From positions 1-46,001 of the forward strand of contig JAGGVE010000004.1 in the NCBI GenBank assembly GCA_021163505.1: a stretch of DNA of 46,001 nucleotides. Direction: 5' to 3'. The stretch comes from Candidatus Iainarchaeum sp. (GTDB lineage: Archaea > Iainarchaeota > Iainarchaeia > Iainarchaeales > DTGL01). Made by a program: the position numbers and the translations under genes. Shown piece after piece: positions 746 to 13,872 of this stretch (position 1 is its first letter; each line of letters starts with the position of its first letter). The notes beneath the pieces were generated by a model. It was not told where the DNA came from and did no database searches. It worked only from the letters and a program-made list of their open reading frames with translations.

Positions 746-2365
746 ATGATGTATGCGGAGAGGGCTTTTGCCCCTTTATTTATTATTTTATATTCAATTC
801 TCTTAGCATCGCTAGTTTTGGGTGCTGAAGTTAGTGGTACAATTGGAGATGAAAATGCACACGCTGGAGCAAGCGGAGATGTGAAAATAGGTGGAGATGC
901 TTATTTAGCGAATGGTTACGCTTGCACTGCTGATTGGGAGTGTTATTCTGGGCATTGTGCGAGCGATTTTGATGGAAGTGGCTCTTGGTGTGCGCCAGCA
1001 ACAAGCTGTGCGCATGATGGGACTATTTACGCAGATGGGGAATCTACTTGTTACGGAACTCGAATAAAGGAAACCTGCACAAGTGGCTCGTGGGTGGCTG
1101 AAGCATGTTCTGGCTCCTGCGAAAATGGTGTTTGCGTTGGTGGGGCTACGCCAACTCCAACACCACCAACAGGTGGTGGAGGCGCTCCAGGCGGTGGCGC
1201 TGGCGGTGCTGGTCCAGGAGCAAGCCCAACACCAACTCCTGAAACTCCAACAAGCGAGGAAGTGTTCCACACAAGCACAACGTATGTGCCAAGTGCAGAG
1301 GAGCTGGAGGAATTGCTTACAGAAGCGGGTTTCTCGCAGGAGGAGATTGAGGAGGCGACTCAGCAGGCAGAGAATGTTGAAATAACTAAGGAGCTAAGCG
1401 TTGTAAAAGAGATAGTGGATGGTGAAGAAAAATATACTAGCACATTTGAAGTTAGGGTACTCAATAAAAGCGCCAATAGATTCAGCGATATAACGATTGT
1501 GGAGAGCATTCCAAAGAATGTTGCGGAGCATGCAAGTGAAATACACTCGCTAAGCGATTTCAGGGTGCTTGAAGCAGACCCGGTAATTGCTTGGGATATT
1601 GCAAAGCTTGAGCCTAATGAAGTGGTTGTTATAGAGTATTGGGTTGAGAAAGAATTGCCTGAAGAAACCCTGAACGAGGTAAAAACTGCATTCTTTGCAG
1701 AAAAAGCAGAAATAGTGGAAGAAAAAACTGGTTCCCTTACTGTAACTCTAAAGGACGAACAGGGGAATATAATAAAAGAACCGGTTGCTGTTGAACTAAC
1801 TAATTTGGAAGGAAATGTGATAATTTCAAAAAGCAGCATTGATGGAAGGGCCGTATTTGAAAATATCCTTGAAGGAAAATATTACGTAGTAGTTGAGGAG
1901 AGTGCAAACTTTAAAGGAAGCAAAATGCTTGTTTATGTTGTCGCTGGCAAGGAAAAAACAGTGGAAATTACTTTAGAGAGTAAAATCGCCATAACGCCAA
2001 CGGTAACGCCAACAGCTACGCCTGCGGTGCCACCAAAAAAGCCAGATTATACGGGACTGATAATACTCATAATACTTGCCTGTCTTGCGTATTTAGGCTA
2101 CTACTTCTGGAAAAAGAAAGCTAAACCAGCGAAGGCAAAGAGAGCTAAGAGAAGAAGGTGGGCTGTTGAAGAAAAAGAGCATGAAGAGAAGCCTGCTGAA
2201 GAAAAACCGGCTGTTAGGGAAGAGGCGGCGAAGGAAAAGCCTGCTGAAGTAGTGCCAGAAGAGAAAGAAGAGGAAGAGAAACCAGTGGAAGAAGTACCTA
2301 AAGAAGAGCCTAAACCTCCGAGGAAAAAGAGGAAGAAAAGGGTAAGCAAATTTAGGCGCCCGTAG
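746..2365 (+). CDS. Exported single-pass membrane protein: signal peptide, Cys-rich domain, T/P/G linker, carboxypeptidase-regulatory-like domain, C-terminal TM, charged K/E/P tail
   Basis: 539 codons. N-terminal hydrophobic stretch AFAPLFIILYSILLASLVLGAE; Cys-rich CTADWECYSGHC...CENGVC; TPTPTPPTGGGGAPGGGAGG linker; SIDGRAVFENILEGKYYVVVE motif; TM YTGLIILIILACLAYLGYYFW; charged tail. GAGGTG upstream of the ATG. Confidence 0.85.
   Translation: MMYAERAFAPLFIILYSILLASLVLGAEVSGTIGDENAHAGASGDVKIGGDAYLANGYACTADWECYSGHCASDFDGSGSWCAPATSCAHDGTIYADGESTCYGTRIKETCTSGSWVAEACSGSCENGVCVGGATPTPTPPTGGGGAPGGGAGGAGPGASPTPTPETPTSEEVFHTSTTYVPSAEELEELLTEAGFSQEEIEEATQQAENVEITKELSVVKEIVDGEEKYTSTFEVRVLNKSANRFSDITIVESIPKNVAEHASEIHSLSDFRVLEADPVIAWDIAKLEPNEVVVIEYWVEKELPEETLNEVKTAFFAEKAEIVEEKTGSLTVTLKDEQGNIIKEPVAVELTNLEGNVIISKSSIDGRAVFENILEGKYYVVVEESANFKGSKMLVYVVAGKEKTVEITLESKIAITPTVTPTATPAVPPKKPDYTGLIILIILACLAYLGYYFWKKKAKPAKAKRAKRRRWAVEEKEHEEKPAEEKPAVREEAAKEKPAEVVPEEKEEEEKPVEEVPKEEPKPPRKKRKKRVSKFRRP
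1150..1257 (+). repeat. Low-complexity T/P- and G-rich linker coding sequence
   Basis: Translates to TPTPTPPTGGGGAPGGGAGGAGPGASPTPTPETPT. Confidence 0.7.
2185..2335 (+). repeat. Degenerate E/K/P repeat in cytosolic tail
   Basis: Translates to EEKPAEEKPAVREEAAKEKPAEVVPEEKEEEEKPVEEVPKEEPKPPRKK. Confidence 0.6.
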
Positions 2366-3168: not shown

Positions 3169-4923
3169 ATGCACCTAAAGCTTGATGCCGATTTGTGCGA
3201 ACAGTGCAAAGAAAAGCTATGTATGAAAGGCTGCCCCAATGGCTTGGATTTGAATGCTCTAAAGTGTGTGCATTGCGATCCTGATAAGGCACCGTGCGCA
3301 TTGGCGTGCAAGCAGGATGCGTTTTACAAGGTTACTGAACAGGTGCTTGCGATAGATGAGAGCAAATGCAATGGTTGCGGTGATTGCGTACTGGCATGTC
3401 CTTATGGGGCAATAACAATAAAGAATGGAAAAGCAAAGAAATGCGATCTGTGCGCAAGCTACAATTTTGAAATTGCATGCATAAATAACTGCAAGTATGG
3501 GGCTATAAAGGTAGAGAAAACCGAGCGGGAGATGAAAGAGATAGAAAGAGCGCTTGGTTGGTTTTGTTTTGAAGTAAAAGAAGGTGTGCAGAGGATTTAT
3601 AGGGAAAAACCAAAAATAATTGAAGCAAACAATGAGCTTTGGTACTTATTAGAATTACCTGAGCTTTCACTTGAGGAAGCAAAGCTTGTAAAATTTGCTC
3701 TTGAAGAATTCCAAAACAATGGCTACAAAGAAAAGGAGATTGAAAAAGCGCTTGCAAACTACTGCAGGAAGAACCTCATCGTGCTTGAAAAAGAGCAGAA
3801 GGATTATATAAAGCGCCTGCTGAAAAACCTAACTCAGTGCTACGGTCCTCTAAGCGAGCTCATCGCTGATGATGAGCTTGAGGAAATTGCTCTTATTGGG
3901 CTTGGCAGAGAGAAACCAGTAAAGGTTTTTCATCAGTGCTTTGGCTGGTGCAACTGCAACCTTTACTTTGCAACTGAGCAAGCGGTTAGAGCGCTTGTAA
4001 ATAGGATGCTCCAAAAAACAGAAAGAAGACTAACGCTGAACGCACCGCGAGTGAACGGCACGCTGCCAGATGGCTCAAGAATAAATGCAACACTGCCACC
4101 AGTGTCATTAGGTGAGCCTACCTTTACAATAAGGAAGTTCAATGTAAAGCGCTTTACGCCAGCTGAACTTATAAGAAATAAAACTTTTAGCTTGGAGCTC
4201 ATGGCATTTTTATGGTGCGTTATGCAGGCAGATTGCTCGCTGGTAATAGCTGGAAACACAGGCAGTGGAAAAACCACAAGCTTGAATGCAATATTCTCCT
4301 TCGTACCATTAAACGAGCGTATAGTGGTTATTGAAGAAACCCCGGAGCTTAAAATCCCACATAAGCATGTTGTGAAGCTAACAGTGTGCAGGGAAAAGGG
4401 AATAGAAATGCATAATCTTATTGAGGATTCGCTGAGGATGCGACCGGATAGGATTATTGTAAGCGAGATAAGAAGTGCTGAAGAAACAAAGGCTTTTATA
4501 AACACCCTGCTGGCTGGCCAGGGAAAGGGCAGTTATGCAACATTCCATGCAAATTCCGCTAAAGAAGCAGTAAAAAGGCTCGAATTTCTCGGAATAAGGA
4601 GCACAGACATAGCAAGCATTGATCTGCTTTTAATACAGAGGCGATGGCCTCGGGCAATGAATAAACGAATATTCGAAGAACGAAGAATGATTGAAGTGGC
4701 TGAACTCTCGGAAAAAGCCAAGCTAAGGATGCTTTACAGATTCAATTATAAAAAGAACAGGCTGATAAAAACCAACAAAAGCAGGCGCATAGCTGAGAAG
4801 ATTGAGAGAACATTTGGAGCGAGGGCAAGCAAGGTTATAAAGGAAAGGGAAAAAGCTCTGAAAAAATATTTGCAGGCAGGGAAAAACATTGTTGATTTTT
4901 TGAGTGAGGTAAATGTCCATTGA
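3169..4923 (+). CDS. Type II/IV secretion (TadA/CpaF/VirB11-like) ATPase with N-terminal four-motif 4Fe-4S polyferredoxin-like domain
   Basis: Walker A AGNTGSGKTTS, Walker B region MRPDRIIVSEIRSAEE, His box GSYATFHANSAKEAVKRLEFL. N-terminus CEQCKEKLCMKGCP, CVHCDPDKAPCALAC, CNGCGDCVLACP, CDLCASYNFEIACINNC. Confidence 0.92.
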   Translation: MHLKLDADLCEQCKEKLCMKGCPNGLDLNALKCVHCDPDKAPCALACKQDAFYKVTEQVLAIDESKCNGCGDCVLACPYGAITIKNGKAKKCDLCASYNFEIACINNCKYGAIKVEKTEREMKEIERALGWFCFEVKEGVQRIYREKPKIIEANNELWYLLELPELSLEEAKLVKFALEEFQNNGYKEKEIEKALANYCRKNLIVLEKEQKDYIKRLLKNLTQCYGPLSELIADDELEEIALIGLGREKPVKVFHQCFGWCNCNLYFATEQAVRALVNRMLQKTERRLTLNAPRVNGTLPDGSRINATLPPVSLGEPTFTIRKFNVKRFTPAELIRNKTFSLELMAFLWCVMQADCSLVIAGNTGSGKTTSLNAIFSFVPLNERIVVIEETPELKIPHKHVVKLTVCREKGIEMHNLIEDSLRMRPDRIIVSEIRSAEETKAFINTLLAGQGKGSYATFHANSAKEAVKRLEFLGIRSTDIASIDLLLIQRRWPRAMNKRIFEERRMIEVAELSEKAKLRMLYRFNYKKNRLIKTNKSRRIAEKIERTFGARASKVIKEREKALKKYLQAGKNIVDFLSEVNVH

Positions 4924-5497
4924 TAATATTATAGAAAGGTACTTTGCAGGCAGAAAAGCCAAGGAAATAGAAGCACAGCTGGTGTTTTTTCTCATGGCTC
5001 TGCGCCTAAACCTTCTCTCCGGACTAAGCCTGGAAAGCTCTCTTAAGAAGGTGAAAAGTGAAGTAAGCGGGGCACTTGCAAAGGAACTCGCAAAGATTGA
5101 AAAAGAACTTGGGAAAGGAAAAGATATTGGCGAAGCGCTCTTGAATTCCGCTTCGCGTATAGAATCGCTTGAATTCAAAAGAGCGTTAAGCCATATAAGC
5201 GAAGTTGCGAGGAGTGGCTATTCTCGGAAGAGCGATACATTAAAGTTGCTCTGTGATGAGTTAATTGAGCTAAGAAAAACAAAGATGCGCGAGTTTTCTT
5301 CGAAGCTTGCAGTACTAAGCTTAATGTTCATAGCTGCAAGCGTAATAATGCCTGCATTATGGTTAGCCTTTGTAATAATGGGCTCTGCGTTCTTCGCATT
5401 GGATATAAGCGCCCTGCAAATATGGCTAAGCGTTACAGTAATCTTTCCAACAATCGCAGTACTGCTATTGCTCTATATAAAAGAAAAGTTTCCGTGA
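4913..5497 (+). CDS. Type II secretion system F-domain membrane protein (TadB-like)
   Basis: Start overlaps the ATPase stop. GLSLESSLKKVKSEVSGALAKELAKIEKELGKGKDIGEALLNSASRIESLEFKRALSHISEVARSG is T2SF-like, followed by two hydrophobic segments. Confidence 0.8.
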   Translation: MSIDNIIERYFAGRKAKEIEAQLVFFLMALRLNLLSGLSLESSLKKVKSEVSGALAKELAKIEKELGKGKDIGEALLNSASRIESLEFKRALSHISEVARSGYSRKSDTLKLLCDELIELRKTKMREFSSKLAVLSLMFIAASVIMPALWLAFVIMGSAFFALDISALQIWLSVTVIFPTIAVLLLLYIKEKFP

Positions 5498-5501
5498 TAA
5501 G

Positions 5502-6419
5502 ATGTTTGAAAGTATTGCAAAAGCATTGTTTGCAGAGGAAAGGGTTGAACGATTTAAATTCTTGCTTGGGCATGAGCTTGGATTAAGCATAAAGCGCGCT
5601 GAAATGCTAGCGCTAAGTATAGCGAGCGTATCTGCACTCATATTCTCAGTATTTGCTTTCCTATCTGATTTGAATGGAATTATTATAATTTTTGGGTTTG
5701 TTTGCGCGTTTGTTATTGCATACCTATTTTCCTTCTTCTTCTTTAGTTTTTTGGCAGAGCGAAAACAGAGAGAGAAAGAAAAGAATGCTAGCGTTGCTTT
5801 AATGCAAGCAAGCTTGCTTCCGGAGGGAACAACAGCAGAGCGGATAGTGAAGGAGCTAAGCAAAATGCATAACCCACTTGCCGAAGAATTCAAAATTGTG
5901 CTAAATGAAATAGGAAAAGGTGCCGAAATAAACAATGCATTGGAAAATTTGGCGAAGCGATGCAATGGCAGAGCGATCGCAAAACTAGTGCAATTATTAA
6001 AGATGGCTGATGTTACTGGCGGAGTAACGCCCGCTATGCTGCGAGAAAGTGCTAAGGAAATAGTTGATGAGCAGACACTGGCAAGGGAACGCGCTGCTTT
6101 GCTAACGATACAAAAAGCAACGCTTGTACTCAGCAGCATGATTTTAGTTCCATTTATTCTTGGAACGCTTGCAGGCATCACTAAAAACTTTGATTTAAGC
6201 TACTTGGATGTGCTTGAGCTTGGAAAAGCAAACCAAGCGGCATTGGTAGAAACAGCAGGGCTAGCGAGCAATGTTTATATAGTTGAGCTTGCAATAATCG
6301 CTTCGTTATTTTTGGGCATGCTTGAAAACAATACAAAGAGAGCAATAGCATACTTGCTTTTAATATTGCCTGTTGCTCTTTCCATATTTTATTTTGCTGT
6401 AAGCACCAAGATAGCTTGA
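5502..6419 (+). CDS. Type II secretion system F-domain membrane protein (TadC-like)
   Basis: Four nt after the previous stop. Multiple TM segments; LPEGTTAERIVKELSKMHNPLAEEFKIVLNEIGKGAEINNALENLAKRCNG...LVQLLKMADVTGG is a T2SF domain pattern. Confidence 0.82.
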   Translation: MFESIAKALFAEERVERFKFLLGHELGLSIKRAEMLALSIASVSALIFSVFAFLSDLNGIIIIFGFVCAFVIAYLFSFFFFSFLAERKQREKEKNASVALMQASLLPEGTTAERIVKELSKMHNPLAEEFKIVLNEIGKGAEINNALENLAKRCNGRAIAKLVQLLKMADVTGGVTPAMLRESAKEIVDEQTLARERAALLTIQKATLVLSSMILVPFILGTLAGITKNFDLSYLDVLELGKANQAALVETAGLASNVYIVELAIIASLFLGMLENNTKRAIAYLLLILPVALSIFYFAVSTKIA

Positions 6420-6573: not shown

Positions 6574-6807
6574 ATGGAAATGCAGTTTGATGTAATAGTG
6601 ATTCAGGATAGCTCTGGCGGATTTATTGGATTTGTTCCAGAACTGCCTGGTTGTCACACCCAGGGTGATACTCTAGATGAACTTATGGAAAATATAAAAG
6701 AAGCCGCAGAGCTCTATATAGAAACTCTTTCTAAGGAAGAAAAAGAAGAACTATTAAAACATAAAACTGAATTTATGGGCATGCAAAAAGTGAAAGTCAA
6801 TGCCTAA
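6574..6807 (+). CDS. hicB: HicB-family antitoxin
   Basis: DVIVIQDSSGGFIGFVPELPGCHTQGDTLDELMENIKEAAELYIE is the canonical HicB-like fold signature; followed by hicA with an 8-nt overlap. Confidence 0.9.
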   Translation: MEMQFDVIVIQDSSGGFIGFVPELPGCHTQGDTLDELMENIKEAAELYIETLSKEEKEELLKHKTEFMGMQKVKVNA

Positions 6808-7039
6808 AATACCTTCCCTAAGCGGAGTTAAGCTCATAAAAATTCTTGAAAAAGTCGGCTTTCAGCGTGTACGACAGAAAGGCTCCCATGTAATTCTGAT
6901 TAATAGCTTCGGAGTTAGAATTGTTGTTCCAATACACCCAAACAGGAAGCTCAAGCAAGGCCTAGTTAGAGTAATAATTAAAGAAGCTGGACTTACTAGG
7001 AAAGAATTTCTTAAACTGTTAAAAAATAGGAAAGCATAG
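6800..7039 (+). CDS. hicA: HicA-family mRNA interferase toxin
   Basis: SGVKLIKILEKVGFQRVRQKGSHVILINSFGVRIVVPIHPNRKLKQGLVRVIIKEAGLTRKEFLKLL; conserved GSH(V) catalytic-His motif. Confidence 0.92.
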   Translation: MPKIPSLSGVKLIKILEKVGFQRVRQKGSHVILINSFGVRIVVPIHPNRKLKQGLVRVIIKEAGLTRKEFLKLLKNRKA

Positions 7040-7249: not shown

Positions 7250-7990
7250 GTGATAAAAATAGTTGAGAAAAAGCCGGAAAAGCTTGGAGATTATACTCTG
7301 CTTGAAGGCTTTCCTGGTCTGGGGCTCGTGGGCACGATAGCAGTGAGGTATCTTATAGAGAAGTTGAAATTTGAACCATACGCACATATAGAGAGCGATT
7401 TCTTTATGCCCATAGTACGTATACATAAAGGGCTGCCAATTCATCCATCAACGATCTATATAAACAGGGAGAAAAGGCTTCTAGCATTAATCTCTGAGCA
7501 GATAATACCGCGCACCGGGGTGCTACCCTTAGCTAAGGCTGTTGTTGGATGGGCTAAAAAGAAGGGAATCAAGCGAATAATATCAATCGAGGGAATAGGC
7601 ACGCATTCTGAAGATAAGCGCGAGATGTTATACGGCATAGCCTGCTCAGAAAAAGCGAAAAGAGAGCTATTAAAAAATGGTATAAAACCTGTTAGTGAGG
7701 GCATTACAAGCGGAGTTACCTCTATGATATTGCTTGAGCTTTCAAAGCAAAATAAAATAATTGCCTATTCTCTGCTTGGCAATGTAAAGGTCGCTGAGGA
7801 TTATAAAGCAGCTGCAAGCTGCCTGAATAAGCTTTCAGAGGTACTTAAACTGGATATAGATACAAAACCGCTTCTAAAAGAAGCGAAGCAATTTGAGGCT
7901 GCTTTATTGAAACAGCTTAGGCAGCTTAAAGAAGCACATGAAAACGTGCGCAAGTTTGAGGAAAGTGCACATCCGCTAATGTATACATAA
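7250..7990 (+). CDS. PAC2-family (proteasome assembly chaperone-like) protein
   Basis: LLEGFPGLGLVGTIAVRYLIEKLKFEPYAHIESDFFMPIVRIHKGLPIHPSTIYI... matches the archaeal PAC2/DUF75 pattern. GTG start preceded by GAGGTGAT. Confidence 0.85.
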   Translation: MIKIVEKKPEKLGDYTLLEGFPGLGLVGTIAVRYLIEKLKFEPYAHIESDFFMPIVRIHKGLPIHPSTIYINREKRLLALISEQIIPRTGVLPLAKAVVGWAKKKGIKRIISIEGIGTHSEDKREMLYGIACSEKAKRELLKNGIKPVSEGITSGVTSMILLELSKQNKIIAYSLLGNVKVAEDYKAAASCLNKLSEVLKLDIDTKPLLKEAKQFEAALLKQLRQLKEAHENVRKFEESAHPLMYT

Positions 7991-8413: not shown

Positions 8414-9340
8414 ATGCCAATAAGAAGAAAAAGGCCCTGGAAAGGGGTTAAAGAAACCAAGAGGGCGCAGGTAAGTAAAGTAAACGTAGACCATGTTATA
8501 GAGGAAAAGCACAGAGTGTACCATACAAAAGAAATTAATGTTACGCGGTTGCCGCCGGAAATAAGGGAAAAGGTTTTGGAAAGCCCCGAGGAAATAACTG
8601 AGGCTTTGAGAAAGGTAATGGCCGAAAAAGAGCAGCCAAAAAAGGAAAAGGAAAAACCAAAGCATGAGTTTGCAGATATTCCCTTTCCACCTGGAAAGGT
8701 GTATACTGGCAAGGGAAAAGATGTTCACACTCTTTACAACTTATGGAGCAAGGCGCTGAATAATCAGCTAAAAATGGTAAAAACCTCAATAGAAAGCGCA
8801 CAAAAAACTTTGAAAACAATGGAGGATGAATTAAGAGAAAAAAGGCATGGTAAATACGTAGCAAAAACCCTTGGTACTCTGTTTAAGATTTGGAGCCCCT
8901 CTGAAATTAGAGAGATTGCCGAACATCCAATAAGAACTATGAGCGAAGGGGCCATCGGAACAAGGTGGAAGATAAGAAGATTAAGGGCGGAACTAGAAAT
9001 AATAGCTCGGCATAGAGAAGAATGGGTCAAACTCTATGAAAGGGAACTGCAATTACTGAAAGAGGCGTATGAAAAATACAAAGAAGATCCGACCAAAGAA
9101 AATGCAGAAAGGTTTGCAAAGGTATTGAGAAAGATTATAGAAATGAATGCTGAATTACAACAGGCTTGCACAGCTGAAGCTTTTACCAGATGGAAGCATT
9201 GGAGATTTTTTAAGGACGGATTTGTTGATAAACAGTACTACAAAAGAGTTATAGCCTATGGTAAAAGGTTAAGAAAAGATCCGAAATATATCCCAAGGTT
9301 ATTTGCAGCTGCGTTTGCGGAATTAGACAGAAGACGCTAA
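8414..9340 (+). CDS. Charged, helical hypothetical protein; N-terminal motif shared with the previous ORF
   Basis: ATG 8414 preceded by GGGTGA (the track start 8405 is a GTG). GVKETKRAQVSKVNVDHVIEEKHRVYHTKEINVTRLPPEI, then a long helix-rich region. Confidence 0.75.
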   Translation: MPIRRKRPWKGVKETKRAQVSKVNVDHVIEEKHRVYHTKEINVTRLPPEIREKVLESPEEITEALRKVMAEKEQPKKEKEKPKHEFADIPFPPGKVYTGKGKDVHTLYNLWSKALNNQLKMVKTSIESAQKTLKTMEDELREKRHGKYVAKTLGTLFKIWSPSEIREIAEHPIRTMSEGAIGTRWKIRRLRAELEIIARHREEWVKLYERELQLLKEAYEKYKEDPTKENAERFAKVLRKIIEMNAELQQACTAEAFTRWKHWRFFKDGFVDKQYYKRVIAYGKRLRKDPKYIPRLFAAAFAELDRRR

Positions 9341-12300
9341 CATCGCTTTTTTATGAAATATATGCGCACGCTGACAAAGGAAAGCACAAGCAGCCCTATA
9401 TAAATTATAAGCAGTAATGGTTGCTCTGGCAGCGAAGGCAGATTGAATGGACCACCTCCCAAACCAGCCTGAATGTTCATTATATTATCGCCTGGCTTTG
9501 TTATTATTTGGCCGCCTGGTGTTGCCTGTGTTAGAGCACCGCTTCTAAACGCTTCAAGAAGAGGTAAAAGTTGAGCATTTTCTACATGCCACATTCCCTT
9601 TTCAGGGTCATACCAGAACGAGCCATTGGGTCCTTGAGCGCTTACAAGCGGCTCTGGAGGATAATTATTATAAACAACCATTGGTCTGCCATCCTCGGCA
9701 GTAACCCCTATATTATGCTCACGGCCATTAGCATCCTTTATGTGTATCCCTTCTGGAGTAACTTCAAAGGATTCTATAGGTGCTTCATACACCTCGCCTG
9801 TTTCCTTATTTATTATTCGTATATAGTCTTTGCAACATTCTATTCCAACACACTTGCCATCTGGTTCATATCTGGAAAAGAAAATAAAGCGCCTTGTCGG
9901 AGTTTCGAGAACAGTAAAGGGCCCTGCATTTTGTAGGGCCTGATTAAAACTATTAACCTTATATGCTTCATAGCCACCTGATGCTGATGGGAGAGCCTCT
10001 ATGGAAAATGCTGGTTCTGGACACATTGTTTCTGGGTTTATAACTTCCTCAGGTTTTAAGCGGATCCCGCCAATGAAATCCTGCGGAACATCCACGGCTT
10101 TACTGCGCTTTAGCCATATTATCAGTTCGTGAGTGTCGGGCTTATATATTATAACGCCATTTTCAAAAATAATTGATTCGAGCAGGCCTGCCTCTTTCCG
10201 CACACTGTTGGTTAAAGCAGTATTGCGGTTGGCTTGTATAATCACTTTTGCATTCTCCCCTTCAACCATTCTCCTTGGTGTACCCTCCGCAACTATCCTC
10301 TTCTGATCGTTTAAGGCATGGATGCTATACATATCAGTGTTTATGGAAAGAACCTTTCCAAATACTGGCTCGAGGTTTAGCCTTTCCCTGTTTGGGTTCT
10401 CATACGGAACGCCGATCTGATATTCTATTCCCTGCAGTATGCAATCAGAAACCTCGGGAACAAGAACGAAAAGCTCAGAATCAATGTTCATTTCAAACAA
10501 TGGCTCGTTCGAATCAGGCAGCCCAACTAAAGTGTAGCGCTTTGGAATCTCTTCTGCGGGAATGTTTGTATTTGTGGATGTCAGGCGAGAAGCAATATTA
10601 TTATCAACAATAGTGTCAAGAATGTTTCCATTTTGATCTATAAGGAAGATTTTGCCCGCGTTAAAATCTACGAGCAATGCAGTATTCTTATCAGCTGAGC
10701 TTATTATTTTATGACCCGATGTTTTGTATTTCATTGGCGAAGTTTCACCTTTAAACCAGAAAGAGAACAGTTGTTCACCCTCAAGCGTTCCGACAGTTGA
10801 ACCTTCCATATGAACATTGGCTTGCACAATGTTGTCCTGCCTTGCACCATGAACAAACTGTTCAACCATTGAGTTTAATTTTTCTGCTGCCTGAGTGGTA
10901 TAGCTATTTTTATCAGAAACGAACATTGATGTTAGGGCATTGGCAAATGCATCTATGGAATTCAGGGCAGCTTCTGTAGAGAGCTGATTTGCCGCTTCCG
11001 TTTTATTACTCTGCTCTTCAGGAGCAGGTACAAATATATGTGTGTAGTAGCCACCGTCTACGTCTACACAGTCTTGAAGCTTTGGAGCAATAACAAGTTG
11101 CTGGAAAGTACTTCCAAATACGCCTGCAAACCCAAAAAGCCAATACCCTGCATTTTCTGCAAAAGCAAGGCCCCCGCCAATAAGTGCTGGATTCATCCAT
11201 TTGGGTAATGAGCCCAGCGTTACTTTCTCCACAGCATCTCTGCAGGTTTCTTTCTTGCGTATCGCTTCTTCCAAGGAAATCCTGGTGCTTCCTGAAACAC
11301 CCTGTTCTTTCCCTTCAAGATCTGTGTGGTGTGTGAATGTTATAAGAGTGCTACCCTTTTTCTTCGCTTTTTCCGAAACAATATCTTCAAGTATATAGGC
11401 GTCAAGCTTTCTGCCAGAATAAAAGCTTGAAAGGAAGTAGGAATAATCCCTGCCTGCACGGATTGAAACTCCGCAGCTTTCACAGCTCTCTGGAGTTGTG
11501 GCATAAAATGCAAGGTTTTCAACAGTATTTCTAATCTGATTGTTTTTGAGTTTATTATATATTTCCTGCAGTGGTTTGAAATTTGCAAACAGGTTTTTGG
11601 CGATGAATTCCCAAGGCATAACTTGAAGCATTCGGTTGAACATATCGCCTTGGTCAGAGCCTTCGTGTGAAAAAAAGTCTATAAATGCATCATTATAGAG
11701 CTCGCTTGAGCCAAGAGGCCAGCGCACCTCTCGCCAAGTATCTGGGAGCATATATGCGGAAGCCCACCTTTGATTTGCACCGCGTTTGCCAATCCAGTAA
11801 AGGTTAAAGAGAGCAGTCCATTTTATTCCGCCTTTTGGCCTCATATAGTTGTGGAAGAATTTATCTTGGTAAGAGATCGCTCTATCGAGCAAACTTAAAT
11901 AGCGCCTCTTCATAAATCCCTGAGCTTCCAAAGTATGCCTCATATAATCTGTATTCAAAGGAGCAAATAGCTTGAGATTCAGCAGGTTCCTTTCTTCGAG
12001 AAGCTTTGAAGCGAAATCTTCTGGGCTGAGCTCAGCAGCAAGGGTTTTTCCTTCTGAATATAAAGGAATTGAACCTGTAGCATGTTTTTTTATTTGGGGC
12101 AGGCTCCAATCTGCAACAGGTACAACATTTCCGCTGTCAAGCTTAACAAACATATCTCTGTATCTGTACCAGTTGGTTTCAAGGTCCTCAACAGTAACAT
12201 CACGTATGTGCCTCCCCGCAGGTTCCAAACGCCAGAGCTTTAGATTCCTGCCTGTTGTTTCATATATGGAGCCTGCAAAATGTCCGTCCTTTCTGAATTT

Positions 12301-13872
12301 ATCAAGCAAATCATACATATATGTTGAATCTCCTGCCAGCCAAGGTGGCGAGGTTGCGCCCTTCTGCTTCACGCTGTACGTCCATAGCCCTGTTGGGCTG
12401 CTCCTTGCAAACCATCCTGGAAGATCGGGTATAACCATAGAATCGGAGTAATCTATTATAACATTGCTCACAACCTTGCCGGTATCTATGCGTGCACCAA
12501 TTTCAGCCGGTGACCCAAATCCGTAAACTTTACGTATAGCGCTGTAACGCTTTTCAGCATGTTTTATCAAATCTGCTTGGGTTTTTGTATAGATGTCCAG
12601 GTCCTTTACAAATTTGTAAAGCTCTCTCTGAGTAATCGGATCATCTATTTTTCTCAGCCATCCATCTGGGGCAAGCCATTCCTTAACAAGCTTGTCTCTG
12701 GTTCCTGGATTTAGAAGAGCATAGCCCTTTGTCCAGCCCTGGCCTTCACTGAGCAATGCTCGAAGCTTCCCCACCTCTGGGTACTGTGTGGCTCTTAACT
12801 TCAATCTTGCTCTGAGACGTCTACCGAAAAAACTATTTGGATTAGCATAAAGCTTCCTTCGCATATAGCTCGCTATGCTGCTATCAGAGAAGCGCCAGGG
12901 AAATACCTTGCTCATTCCAAGATGCTTAAATAATAGGCGTCCCTTTCCAAGCAGGGTCGGCATAACTGTGGAAAACGTCATATCAAACGAAAACCACTGG
13001 TTATAGTATTTGTCGAAAAGCGAATATATAGAAATTACACAATCCGCACTGTTGCAGGTTGTTTGCCCATATGCATAGAAGTTGTATGTGAGAATTGAAT
13101 TTGGAATAACCTTCCCTGGAACCCTAACATAGGTTTCTATATTCGCATCATTGACATCGGTAAAAGCCAAACGCATTTTGAGGTCTTCTTCTGCACTTTC
13201 AGGCAGGCCAAGCTGTTCCCTTATGTGCCTGTAATCCTCATCTGTGAGATCTTCCTGATTTTTATCCTTAAGGGCAGGTACAGAATCTTTAAGCACCTTC
13301 CATAGATTCTTAAAGTCGCCTGTTATTCCAGTGCCAGAATTGCGCAGAGAAAGCTGCTTGCCGGCAAGCGGGCATGGAATATTCTTATCCTTTAAATTTA
13401 CGCATCGTCCAACGCGAAGCGTATCGGTGAGCACTATACCAAAAGCGTATGGGCCATTTATCCAGTTATCCGATAGGTGGATTGCACTATTTAGATCAAA
13501 CTTCTGGTCTGCAAGCTCAACCTTTTGCGCCTGCCCAGACTCTTTACCCAGAGGGATTATCACAACAGGGTTCTCAAGCTTATCCTGTTCCCGTGTTTTG
13601 CCATTGCTTCCAAACTCAGAACCAGTAAAACCATCTGAAAGAAGCTTTAAAATATTAAAAGAGTCCTCTGTGCTAAGCTGTCCAATATCACAGGTAAAGT
13701 GAGCTCTCTTCTCTGCTGCACTTTTTTGACCCTGTAGGAATAAGCTTTTACTTTCAACCAGACCATATGTGTAATTGGCATTGAATAGCAGAGCAATAAT
13801 AACAGCTACAAAAAAATCATAGATAAGTGAGCGCACACCTTTACTGCCCTTCCTTGTATCGTTTTTCAGCAT
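9337..13872 (-). CDS. Large exported/membrane-anchored orphan protein (1511 aa)
   Basis: Long uninterrupted ORF. N-terminal hydrophobic segment SLIYDFFVAVIIALLFNANYTYG; C-terminal TM PLLLIIYIGLLVLSFVSVRIYFIKKRC; Cys pairs (CESCG). No family recognised. Confidence 0.88.
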   Translation of the reverse strand: MLKNDTRKGSKGVRSLIYDFFVAVIIALLFNANYTYGLVESKSLFLQGQKSAAEKRAHFTCDIGQLSTEDSFNILKLLSDGFTGSEFGSNGKTREQDKLENPVVIIPLGKESGQAQKVELADQKFDLNSAIHLSDNWINGPYAFGIVLTDTLRVGRCVNLKDKNIPCPLAGKQLSLRNSGTGITGDFKNLWKVLKDSVPALKDKNQEDLTDEDYRHIREQLGLPESAEEDLKMRLAFTDVNDANIETYVRVPGKVIPNSILTYNFYAYGQTTCNSADCVISIYSLFDKYYNQWFSFDMTFSTVMPTLLGKGRLLFKHLGMSKVFPWRFSDSSIASYMRRKLYANPNSFFGRRLRARLKLRATQYPEVGKLRALLSEGQGWTKGYALLNPGTRDKLVKEWLAPDGWLRKIDDPITQRELYKFVKDLDIYTKTQADLIKHAEKRYSAIRKVYGFGSPAEIGARIDTGKVVSNVIIDYSDSMVIPDLPGWFARSSPTGLWTYSVKQKGATSPPWLAGDSTYMYDLLDKFRKDGHFAGSIYETTGRNLKLWRLEPAGRHIRDVTVEDLETNWYRYRDMFVKLDSGNVVPVADWSLPQIKKHATGSIPLYSEGKTLAAELSPEDFASKLLEERNLLNLKLFAPLNTDYMRHTLEAQGFMKRRYLSLLDRAISYQDKFFHNYMRPKGGIKWTALFNLYWIGKRGANQRWASAYMLPDTWREVRWPLGSSELYNDAFIDFFSHEGSDQGDMFNRMLQVMPWEFIAKNLFANFKPLQEIYNKLKNNQIRNTVENLAFYATTPESCESCGVSIRAGRDYSYFLSSFYSGRKLDAYILEDIVSEKAKKKGSTLITFTHHTDLEGKEQGVSGSTRISLEEAIRKKETCRDAVEKVTLGSLPKWMNPALIGGGLAFAENAGYWLFGFAGVFGSTFQQLVIAPKLQDCVDVDGGYYTHIFVPAPEEQSNKTEAANQLSTEAALNSIDAFANALTSMFVSDKNSYTTQAAEKLNSMVEQFVHGARQDNIVQANVHMEGSTVGTLEGEQLFSFWFKGETSPMKYKTSGHKIISSADKNTALLVDFNAGKIFLIDQNGNILDTIVDNNIASRLTSTNTNIPAEEIPKRYTLVGLPDSNEPLFEMNIDSELFVLVPEVSDCILQGIEYQIGVPYENPNRERLNLEPVFGKVLSINTDMYSIHALNDQKRIVAEGTPRRMVEGENAKVIIQANRNTALTNSVRKEAGLLESIIFENGVIIYKPDTHELIIWLKRSKAVDVPQDFIGGIRLKPEEVINPETMCPEPAFSIEALPSASGGYEAYKVNSFNQALQNAGPFTVLETPTRRFIFFSRYEPDGKCVGIECCKDYIRIINKETGEVYEAPIESFEVTPEGIHIKDANGREHNIGVTAEDGRPMVVYNNYPPEPLVSAQGPNGSFWYDPEKGMWHVENAQLLPLLEAFRSGALTQATPGGQIITKPGDNIMNIQAGLGGGPFNLPSLPEQPLLLIIYIGLLVLSFVSVRIYFIKKRC

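What the first reader, a model, noticed from the sequence alone, without database searches (positions are those of the whole stretch)
3169..4923. Secretion ATPase fused to a four-cluster ferredoxin-like domain
Seen: one uninterrupted ORF encodes about 115 aa with four Cys motifs (CxxCx4CxxxCP, CxxCx6CxxxC, CxxCxxCxxxCP, CxxCx8CxxxC; 16 Cys) followed by a complete TadA/CpaF/VirB11-like ATPase with Walker A, Walker B and His boxes. Established: this four-motif layout resembles electron-transfer subunits of the HycB/NrfC/DmsB type; TadA/FlaI ATPases do not normally carry Fe-S clusters. Inference: redox- or O2-sensitive control of pilus/secretion assembly, or a structural role of the clusters.
Basis: partly seen in the sequence, partly recalled or inferred. 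Interest (0 to 1): 0.88.

Follow-up and report, generated by a model that had tools for sequence, protein, structure and literature searches.

The report
Pilus ATPase carrying four iron-sulfur clusters
In a tiny-celled archaeon, the motor enzyme of a pilus or secretion machine is permanently joined to a four-cluster iron-sulfur domain otherwise known from electron-transfer enzymes; the fusion is old, shared by two archaeal phyla, and tends to be missing where an oxygen-defence gene is present, which suggests a machine tied to anaerobic redox state.

Summary
It is not an assembly artefact: the fusion occurs in seven Iainarchaeota (Diapherotrites) families, some outside the window's order, and in Micrarchaeota, with all 16 Cys kept. 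Four-, three-, two-cluster and cluster-free orthologues exist, and cysteines disappear only as whole ligand sets of one cubane (motif I C1-3 with motif IV C4; motif III C1-3 with motif II C4). This is strong evidence that real [4Fe-4S] clusters are bound in the HycB/NrfC/NarH arrangement; AlphaFold plus Foldseek agree. Cluster-free orthologues keep the operon, so the clusters are an optional module. The module anti-correlates with superoxide dismutase (SOD in 0 of 11 four-cluster genomes, 27 of 52 cluster-free ones). Best reading: an O2/redox-responsive N-terminal control module on an anaerobe's pilus/secretion motor. Structural and electron-conduit roles are not excluded. It is a new domain architecture of a known ATPase superfamily; no published description was found in the library held.

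The parts
3169..4923 (+). Fe-S/ATPase fusion gene, 584 aa plus stop
3169..3519 (+). four-cluster ferredoxin domain (residues 1-117)
   Evidence: Pfam Fer4 families; fold match to HycB/NrfC/WOR5/AorA/FdnH
3196..3237 (+). Cys motif I, CxxCx4CxxxCP
   Evidence: invariant in four-cluster members
3265..3309 (+). Cys motif II, CxxCx6CxxxC
3367..3402 (+). Cys motif III, CxxCxxCxxxCP
3442..3492 (+). Cys motif IV, CxxCx8CxxxC
3523..3555 (+). linker helix (residues 119-129) ahead of the conserved GW; many cluster-free orthologues begin about here
3556..4920 (+). FlaI/TadA-type ATPase with its N-terminal domain
   Evidence: T2SSE; Foldseek 2oap, 4ihq, 8rjf
4252..4275 (+). Walker A GNTGSGKT
   Evidence: invariant or nearly so in 47 homologues
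4333..4347 (+). Asp box EETPE
4432..4473 (+). Walker B region LRMRPDRIIVSEIR
4540..4548 (+). His box TFH (H460)
4913..5497 (+). T2SSF platform protein 1, overlaps the ATPase gene by 11 bases
   Evidence: PF00482 1.3e-11
5502..6419 (+). T2SSF platform protein 2
   Evidence: PF00482 9.6e-8
7250..7990 (+). PAC2-family protein, recurrent neighbour of the operon
   Evidence: PF09754 2e-40; synteny
9337..13872 (-). large (1511 aa) conserved protein with a hydrophobic N-terminal stretch and a C-terminal hydrophobic segment, recurrent neighbour; relation to the operon unknown
   Evidence: synteny; no Pfam match
746..2365 (+). membrane-anchored surface protein upstream (family f1 only); possible partner or substrate, by position alone

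Best explanation
The protein is a FlaI/TadA-family motor ATPase (hexameric by family knowledge) that drives a pilus-like or secretion apparatus together with two T2SSF platform proteins. Its extra N-terminal domain binds up to four [4Fe-4S] clusters in the HycB/NrfC arrangement. The most likely role is control: the integrity or redox state of the clusters, set by cytosolic ferredoxin potential, O2 and iron, changes the conformation or packing of the N-terminal ring and so whether the motor engages its platform, so that the machine runs only under reducing, anoxic conditions. Shown here: the fusion, its conservation, the predicted fold, ligand-set covariation, optional status, synteny with T2SSF genes and the anti-correlation with superoxide dismutase. 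Inferred: cluster occupancy in this protein, hexamerisation, the direction of control, and what is secreted or assembled.
For: All 16 ligands invariant in four-cluster members of two phyla. Ligands lost only as complete cubane sets, 16 to 12 to 8. Cluster-free orthologues keep the T2SSF operon, and on the ATPase tree the Fe-S members are scattered, so the domain is an optional module. The ends of the FS1-FS4 chain are the parts lost, leaving the central pair, which fits a core that senses or staples better than an end-to-end wire. SOD (PF02777) in 0 of 11 four-cluster and 2 of 24 cluster-bearing genomes against 27 of 52 cluster-free ones, p=0.0015 and 0.0003; by family majority 0/10 against 9/15, p=0.003. 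The domain sits ahead of the ATPase N-terminal domain.
Against: No experiment. The SOD association rests on incomplete MAGs and has only 2 well-supported independent contrasts. O2 lability alone would give the same association for a merely structural cluster. Half of the cluster-free genomes also lack SOD.
Confidence: 0.45

Rival explanations
1. Structural or docking scaffold: the clusters hold a docking domain together, as the Fe-S domain on ABCE1 is attached to its ATPase, and are not redox-switched in the cell.
For: Fe-S domain as a separate N-terminal lobe with a helical linker; the minimum kept is the central pair of clusters; loss where SOD is present fits O2 lability.
Against: Cluster-free orthologues work in the same gene setting; all four clusters are kept under strong constraint in many lineages, more than a scaffold seems to need.
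Confidence: 0.28
2. Electron delivery: the domain is an electron wire from cytosolic ferredoxin or a HycB-like partner into the machine, to reduce exported proteins or feed extracellular electron transfer.
For: The nearest folds are wire subunits: HDCR HycB3/HycB4 and AorA, the latter forming conducting filaments (PMC10413684). 2-oxoacid:ferredoxin oxidoreductase domain in 23 of 24 cluster-bearing genomes.
Against: Terminal clusters are the ones lost in f4, f22 and f22b; no electron-transfer partner gene in the conserved neighbourhood apart from geranylgeranyl reductase in some loci; the POR association is not significant (p=0.16).
Confidence: 0.2
3. The Cys domain no longer binds [4Fe-4S] clusters; it binds zinc or is a relic.
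For: Lineages with 12 or 8 ligands and with none exist.
Against: Cysteines vanish only as complete cross-motif cubane sets. Spacing, the Pro after motifs I and III, and the predicted fold match ferredoxins. 16 of 16 Cys invariant in four-cluster members.
Confidence: 0.05

Closest known systems
FlaI/ArlI archaellum ATPase and archaeal GspE (A. fulgidus, 2oap)
   Same: ATPase fold and catalytic motifs; partnership with T2SSF-type platform proteins
   Different: No Fe-S domain; the window protein's clade is separate from the FlaI-like ATPases of its own genome
TadA/CpaF pilus ATPase (8rjf, 9e24)
   Same: ATPase core, two platform genes downstream
   Different: No Fe-S domain; sequence match is partial and below the NCBIfam cut-off
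HycB / NrfC / DmsB / FdnH four-cluster ferredoxin subunits; HDCR HycB3/4 and AorA
   Same: Four CxxC...CxxxC motifs, predicted fold, ligand pairing I/IV and II/III
   Different: Those are stand-alone subunits of redox enzymes; here the domain is fused to a motor ATPase and tolerates loss of its end clusters
ABCE1
   Same: Precedent for an N-terminal ferredoxin-like Fe-S domain on an ATPase (general knowledge; only a weak Foldseek match, 7o80, E 0.07)
   Different: Two clusters, ABC-type ATPase, ribosome recycling

Membership tests
T2SSE / secretion ATPase superfamily (PF00437) | Walker A, Asp box, Walker B, His box and RecA-like fold | tested here: met
   PF00437 1.8e-37; motifs conserved; Foldseek 2oap E 7e-35
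T2SSE / secretion ATPase superfamily (PF00437) | ATP hydrolysis and hexameric ring | not testable with these tools
   Needs purified protein
FlaI (archaellum) or TadA/CpaF proper | Curated equivalog cut-off (NF058587 550 bits, TIGR03819 373 bits) | tested here: not met
   211 and 182 bits; separate clade from the FlaI-like paralogues
HycB/NrfC/DmsB four-cluster ferredoxin domain | Four Cys motifs with predicted double-ferredoxin fold | tested here: met
HycB/NrfC/DmsB four-cluster ferredoxin domain | Cross-motif ligand pairing I/IV and II/III | tested here: met
   Co-loss of exactly I1-3+IV4 and of III1-3+II4
HycB/NrfC/DmsB four-cluster ferredoxin domain | Bound [4Fe-4S] clusters | not testable with these tools
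   Needs anaerobic purification and spectroscopy
HycB/NrfC/DmsB four-cluster ferredoxin domain | Subunit of a redox enzyme encoded next to its catalytic partner | tested here: not met
   Neighbours are T2SSF, PAC2, surface proteins, UppS, DUF192

The most novel reading that the evidence does not exclude
An ancient class of pilus/secretion motors (the common stem of at least the Iainarchaeota and Micrarchaeota ATPase clade, plus a second, separate ATPase lineage in Micrarchaeota) is gated by a four-cluster ferredoxin built into the motor, so that cell-surface assembly is directly coupled to intracellular redox potential; clusters are shed one at a time, as whole ligand sets, as lineages change their exposure to oxygen.
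Probability: 0.35. Interest if true: 0.85.

Novelty: new variant of a known kind. Interest (0 to 1): 0.7.

Why it matters
No Fe-S-bearing pilus or secretion ATPase turned up in the literature searched. If the clusters gate the motor, this is a direct molecular link between redox state and surface-structure assembly in DPANN archaea, many of which are thought to depend on contact with other cells. The natural series with 4, 3, 2 and 0 clusters is a ready-made experiment for asking what each cluster does, and the co-loss of ligand sets is unusually clean evolutionary evidence of cluster coordination.

Tried and rejected
Assembly artefact: rejected, because the fusion recurs in independent genomes. 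Split version in cluster-free lineages: none found (in G082 the Fe-S part and the ATPase lie at contig ends, read as a contig break). Link to POR as electron source: not significant. Fusions elsewhere: none among 333 genomes of the Woesearchaeota-containing phylum or 148 Aenigmatarchaeota (an empty answer without a positive control), only short stand-alone ferredoxins in 29 genomes of the Altiarchaeota phylum, and no full-length plasmid match. The 590-aa candidate in a 'Euryarchaeota' MAG (L208) is an ordinary molybdoenzyme subunit. One single clade of all Fe-S members on the ATPase tree is rejected (AU p=0.0002), so losses or transfers are multiple. Independence of the three-cluster state in f4 and f22 is not shown by the gene tree (AU p=0.44), only suggested by their placement in different orders.

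Full report
Observation. The ORF at 3169-4923 is one uninterrupted 584-aa protein. The window is the whole contig C10 of a 959-kb genome that is 94% complete.

Conservation. The four-cluster fusion is present in family f1 (5 genomes), in f7, f12, f15 and f18 and, outside the order, in f23 and f24, and in the Diapherotrites MAG LH_S9. All 16 Cys are kept in each. In the Micrarchaeota 9 of 296 sampled genomes carry Fe-S ATPase fusions. Five genomes have relatives of the window protein ('type 1', L219-L223). Six genomes have a second, distant ATPase lineage of about 730-760 aa with the same 16-Cys N-terminus ('type 2', L224-L228, L230, L231, L238-L241; T2SSE 5e-21). None was found among 333 genomes of the Woesearchaeota-containing phylum or 148 Aenigmatarchaeota.

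Ligand-set decay. Families f4 and f22 carry 12 of the 16 Cys and the second f22 genus (f22b) carries 8. In f4 and f22 the missing residues are exactly I-C1, I-C2, I-C3 and IV-C4. In f22b the missing residues are these plus III-C1, III-C2, III-C3 and II-C4. In bacterial-type ferredoxin folds each cubane takes three Cys from one motif and the fourth from its partner motif; in HycB/NarH-type proteins the partners are I/IV and II/III (established knowledge). The losses are therefore precisely one cluster, then a second. A random four of sixteen would be a ligand set with probability 0.0022, and a further four of twelve with 0.006. A fairer null, in which the first three Cys of a motif go together and the fourth loss is random, still gives about 1 in 13 and 1 in 9 per event (my arithmetic). 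At least two events are needed. f4 and f22 lie in different orders, but the gene tree alone does not exclude their union (AU p=0.44).

Which clusters are kept. In EbDH and NarGHI electrons run in numerical order FS1 to FS4, FS1:FS2 and FS3:FS4 share domains, and FS4 is the [3Fe-4S] cluster (PMC8840923; PMC8301774). In the EbDH beta subunit the second Cys of motif III is missing (alignment), so FS4 is the motif-III cluster. FS1 as the motif-I cluster is my knowledge of NarH. On this mapping the losses remove FS1 and then FS4, the two ends of the chain, and leave the central pair FS2-FS3. That argues against end-to-end electron conduction as the general function; it fits a core that senses or staples.

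Fold. AlphaFold2 with 47 homologues gives pLDDT 91.9 and pTM 0.82 for the whole protein. Foldseek finds archaeal GspE (2oap), FlaI (4ihq, 4ii7) and CpaF (8rjf) for the ATPase. For the N-domain, modelled alone (pLDDT 88.6), it finds an electron-bifurcating aldehyde oxidoreductase subunit, HDCR HycB3 and HycB4, polysulfide reductase NrfC, WOR5, formate hydrogenlyase HycB, AorA and FdnH. A helix (119-129) joins the two parts, ahead of the ATPase N-terminal domain. In FlaI the extreme N-terminus is needed for motility but not for ATPase activity (my recollection of the FlaI structural work, not re-read here), which makes this a plausible place for control.

Evolution. On ATPase-only trees the Fe-S members do not form one clade (AU p=0.0002); they are scattered among cluster-free ones. 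Iainarchaeota and Micrarchaeota type 1 proteins, with and without clusters, form one clade at 100/100 support, apart from the FlaI-like ATPases of the same genome. Conserved neighbours reach across both phyla: prenyltransferase UppS, DUF192, ATPase, T2SSF, with geranylgeranyl reductase nearby in some loci. The simplest reading is an ancestral fusion with repeated loss of the domain at its linker; lateral exchange is not excluded. Identities of the Fe-S domain and the ATPase covary (Spearman 0.57 in four-cluster members), as expected for co-inheritance. No stand-alone copy of the domain was found in cluster-free genomes.

Lifestyle. I tested two markers. A 2-oxoacid:ferredoxin oxidoreductase domain (PF01855) is present in most genomes and does not separate the groups (p=0.16). 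Superoxide dismutase (PF02777) is absent from all 11 four-cluster genomes and from 22 of 24 cluster-bearing genomes, but present in 27 of 52 cluster-free ones (p=0.0015 and 0.0003). By family, 0 of 10 cluster-bearing groups against 9 of 15 cluster-free groups have it in at least half of their genomes (p=0.003). The association survives correction for two tests, but phylogenetic contrasts are too few (2 well-supported pairs) to call it independent of descent, and these are incomplete MAGs. That SOD marks exposure to oxygen is general knowledge.

Mechanism. The ATPase, with its two platform proteins, should power a pilus-like or secretion machine (family knowledge; two T2SSF genes). The clusters are not needed for that, because 52 orthologues lack them, and those whose surroundings were examined stand in the same gene setting. 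They are therefore an add-on, retained mostly in genomes without SOD. I favour redox/O2 gating (0.45), then a structural docking domain (0.28), then electron delivery (0.20). None of the three has been shown.

Literature. The census of archaeal type IV pili (PMC4858521) mentions neither ferredoxin nor Fe-S nor DPANN in its main text. Five further text searches found no Fe-S secretion or archaellum ATPase. The library holds open-licence papers only, so this is not proof of novelty.

Noticed in passing
window 9337-13872 (-): A 1511-aa protein without Pfam match, conserved near the operon in most Iainarchaeota examined, ends in a conserved LPSLPE-like motif, a hydrophobic segment and basic residues, reminiscent of a C-terminal sorting or processing signal.
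   Followed up: partly
window 6574-7039 (+): A HicB-like antitoxin and HicA toxin gene pair inserted between the platform genes and the PAC2 gene.
   Followed up: no
L230:6439-8715, L231:6170-8347, L238:6873-9071, L239:6953-9151 (-), L240:5460-7655 (-), L241:6097-8295: A second, distant lineage of Micrarchaeota secretion ATPases (Walker A GAPATGKT) carries the same 16-Cys N-terminal domain, so the combination arose twice or the domain was exchanged between ATPases.
   Followed up: partly
L236:3364-5097 and L237:7002-8729: In these two Micrarchaeota type 1 proteins motif III reads CxxCxxCxC, with a shortened spacing before the fourth Cys.
   Followed up: no
L200-L203, N-termini of the ATPases: The two-cluster proteins carry two additional Cys (YEC..., LCADGG) not at any ligand position of the other members.
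   Followed up: no
L159:8589-10400 (-) and neighbours: In G092 a second, 802-aa ATPase of the superfamily with its own two T2SSF genes stands directly beside the Fe-S ATPase operon.
   Followed up: no
L236 and L237, genes upstream of the ATPase: Geranylgeranyl reductase, UppS-type prenyltransferase and DUF192 genes stand upstream of the Fe-S ATPase in Micrarchaeota and near it in some Iainarchaeota; some archaeal geranylgeranyl reductases are thought to take electrons from ferredoxin (general knowledge), so the neighbourhood may be more than chance.
   Followed up: partly
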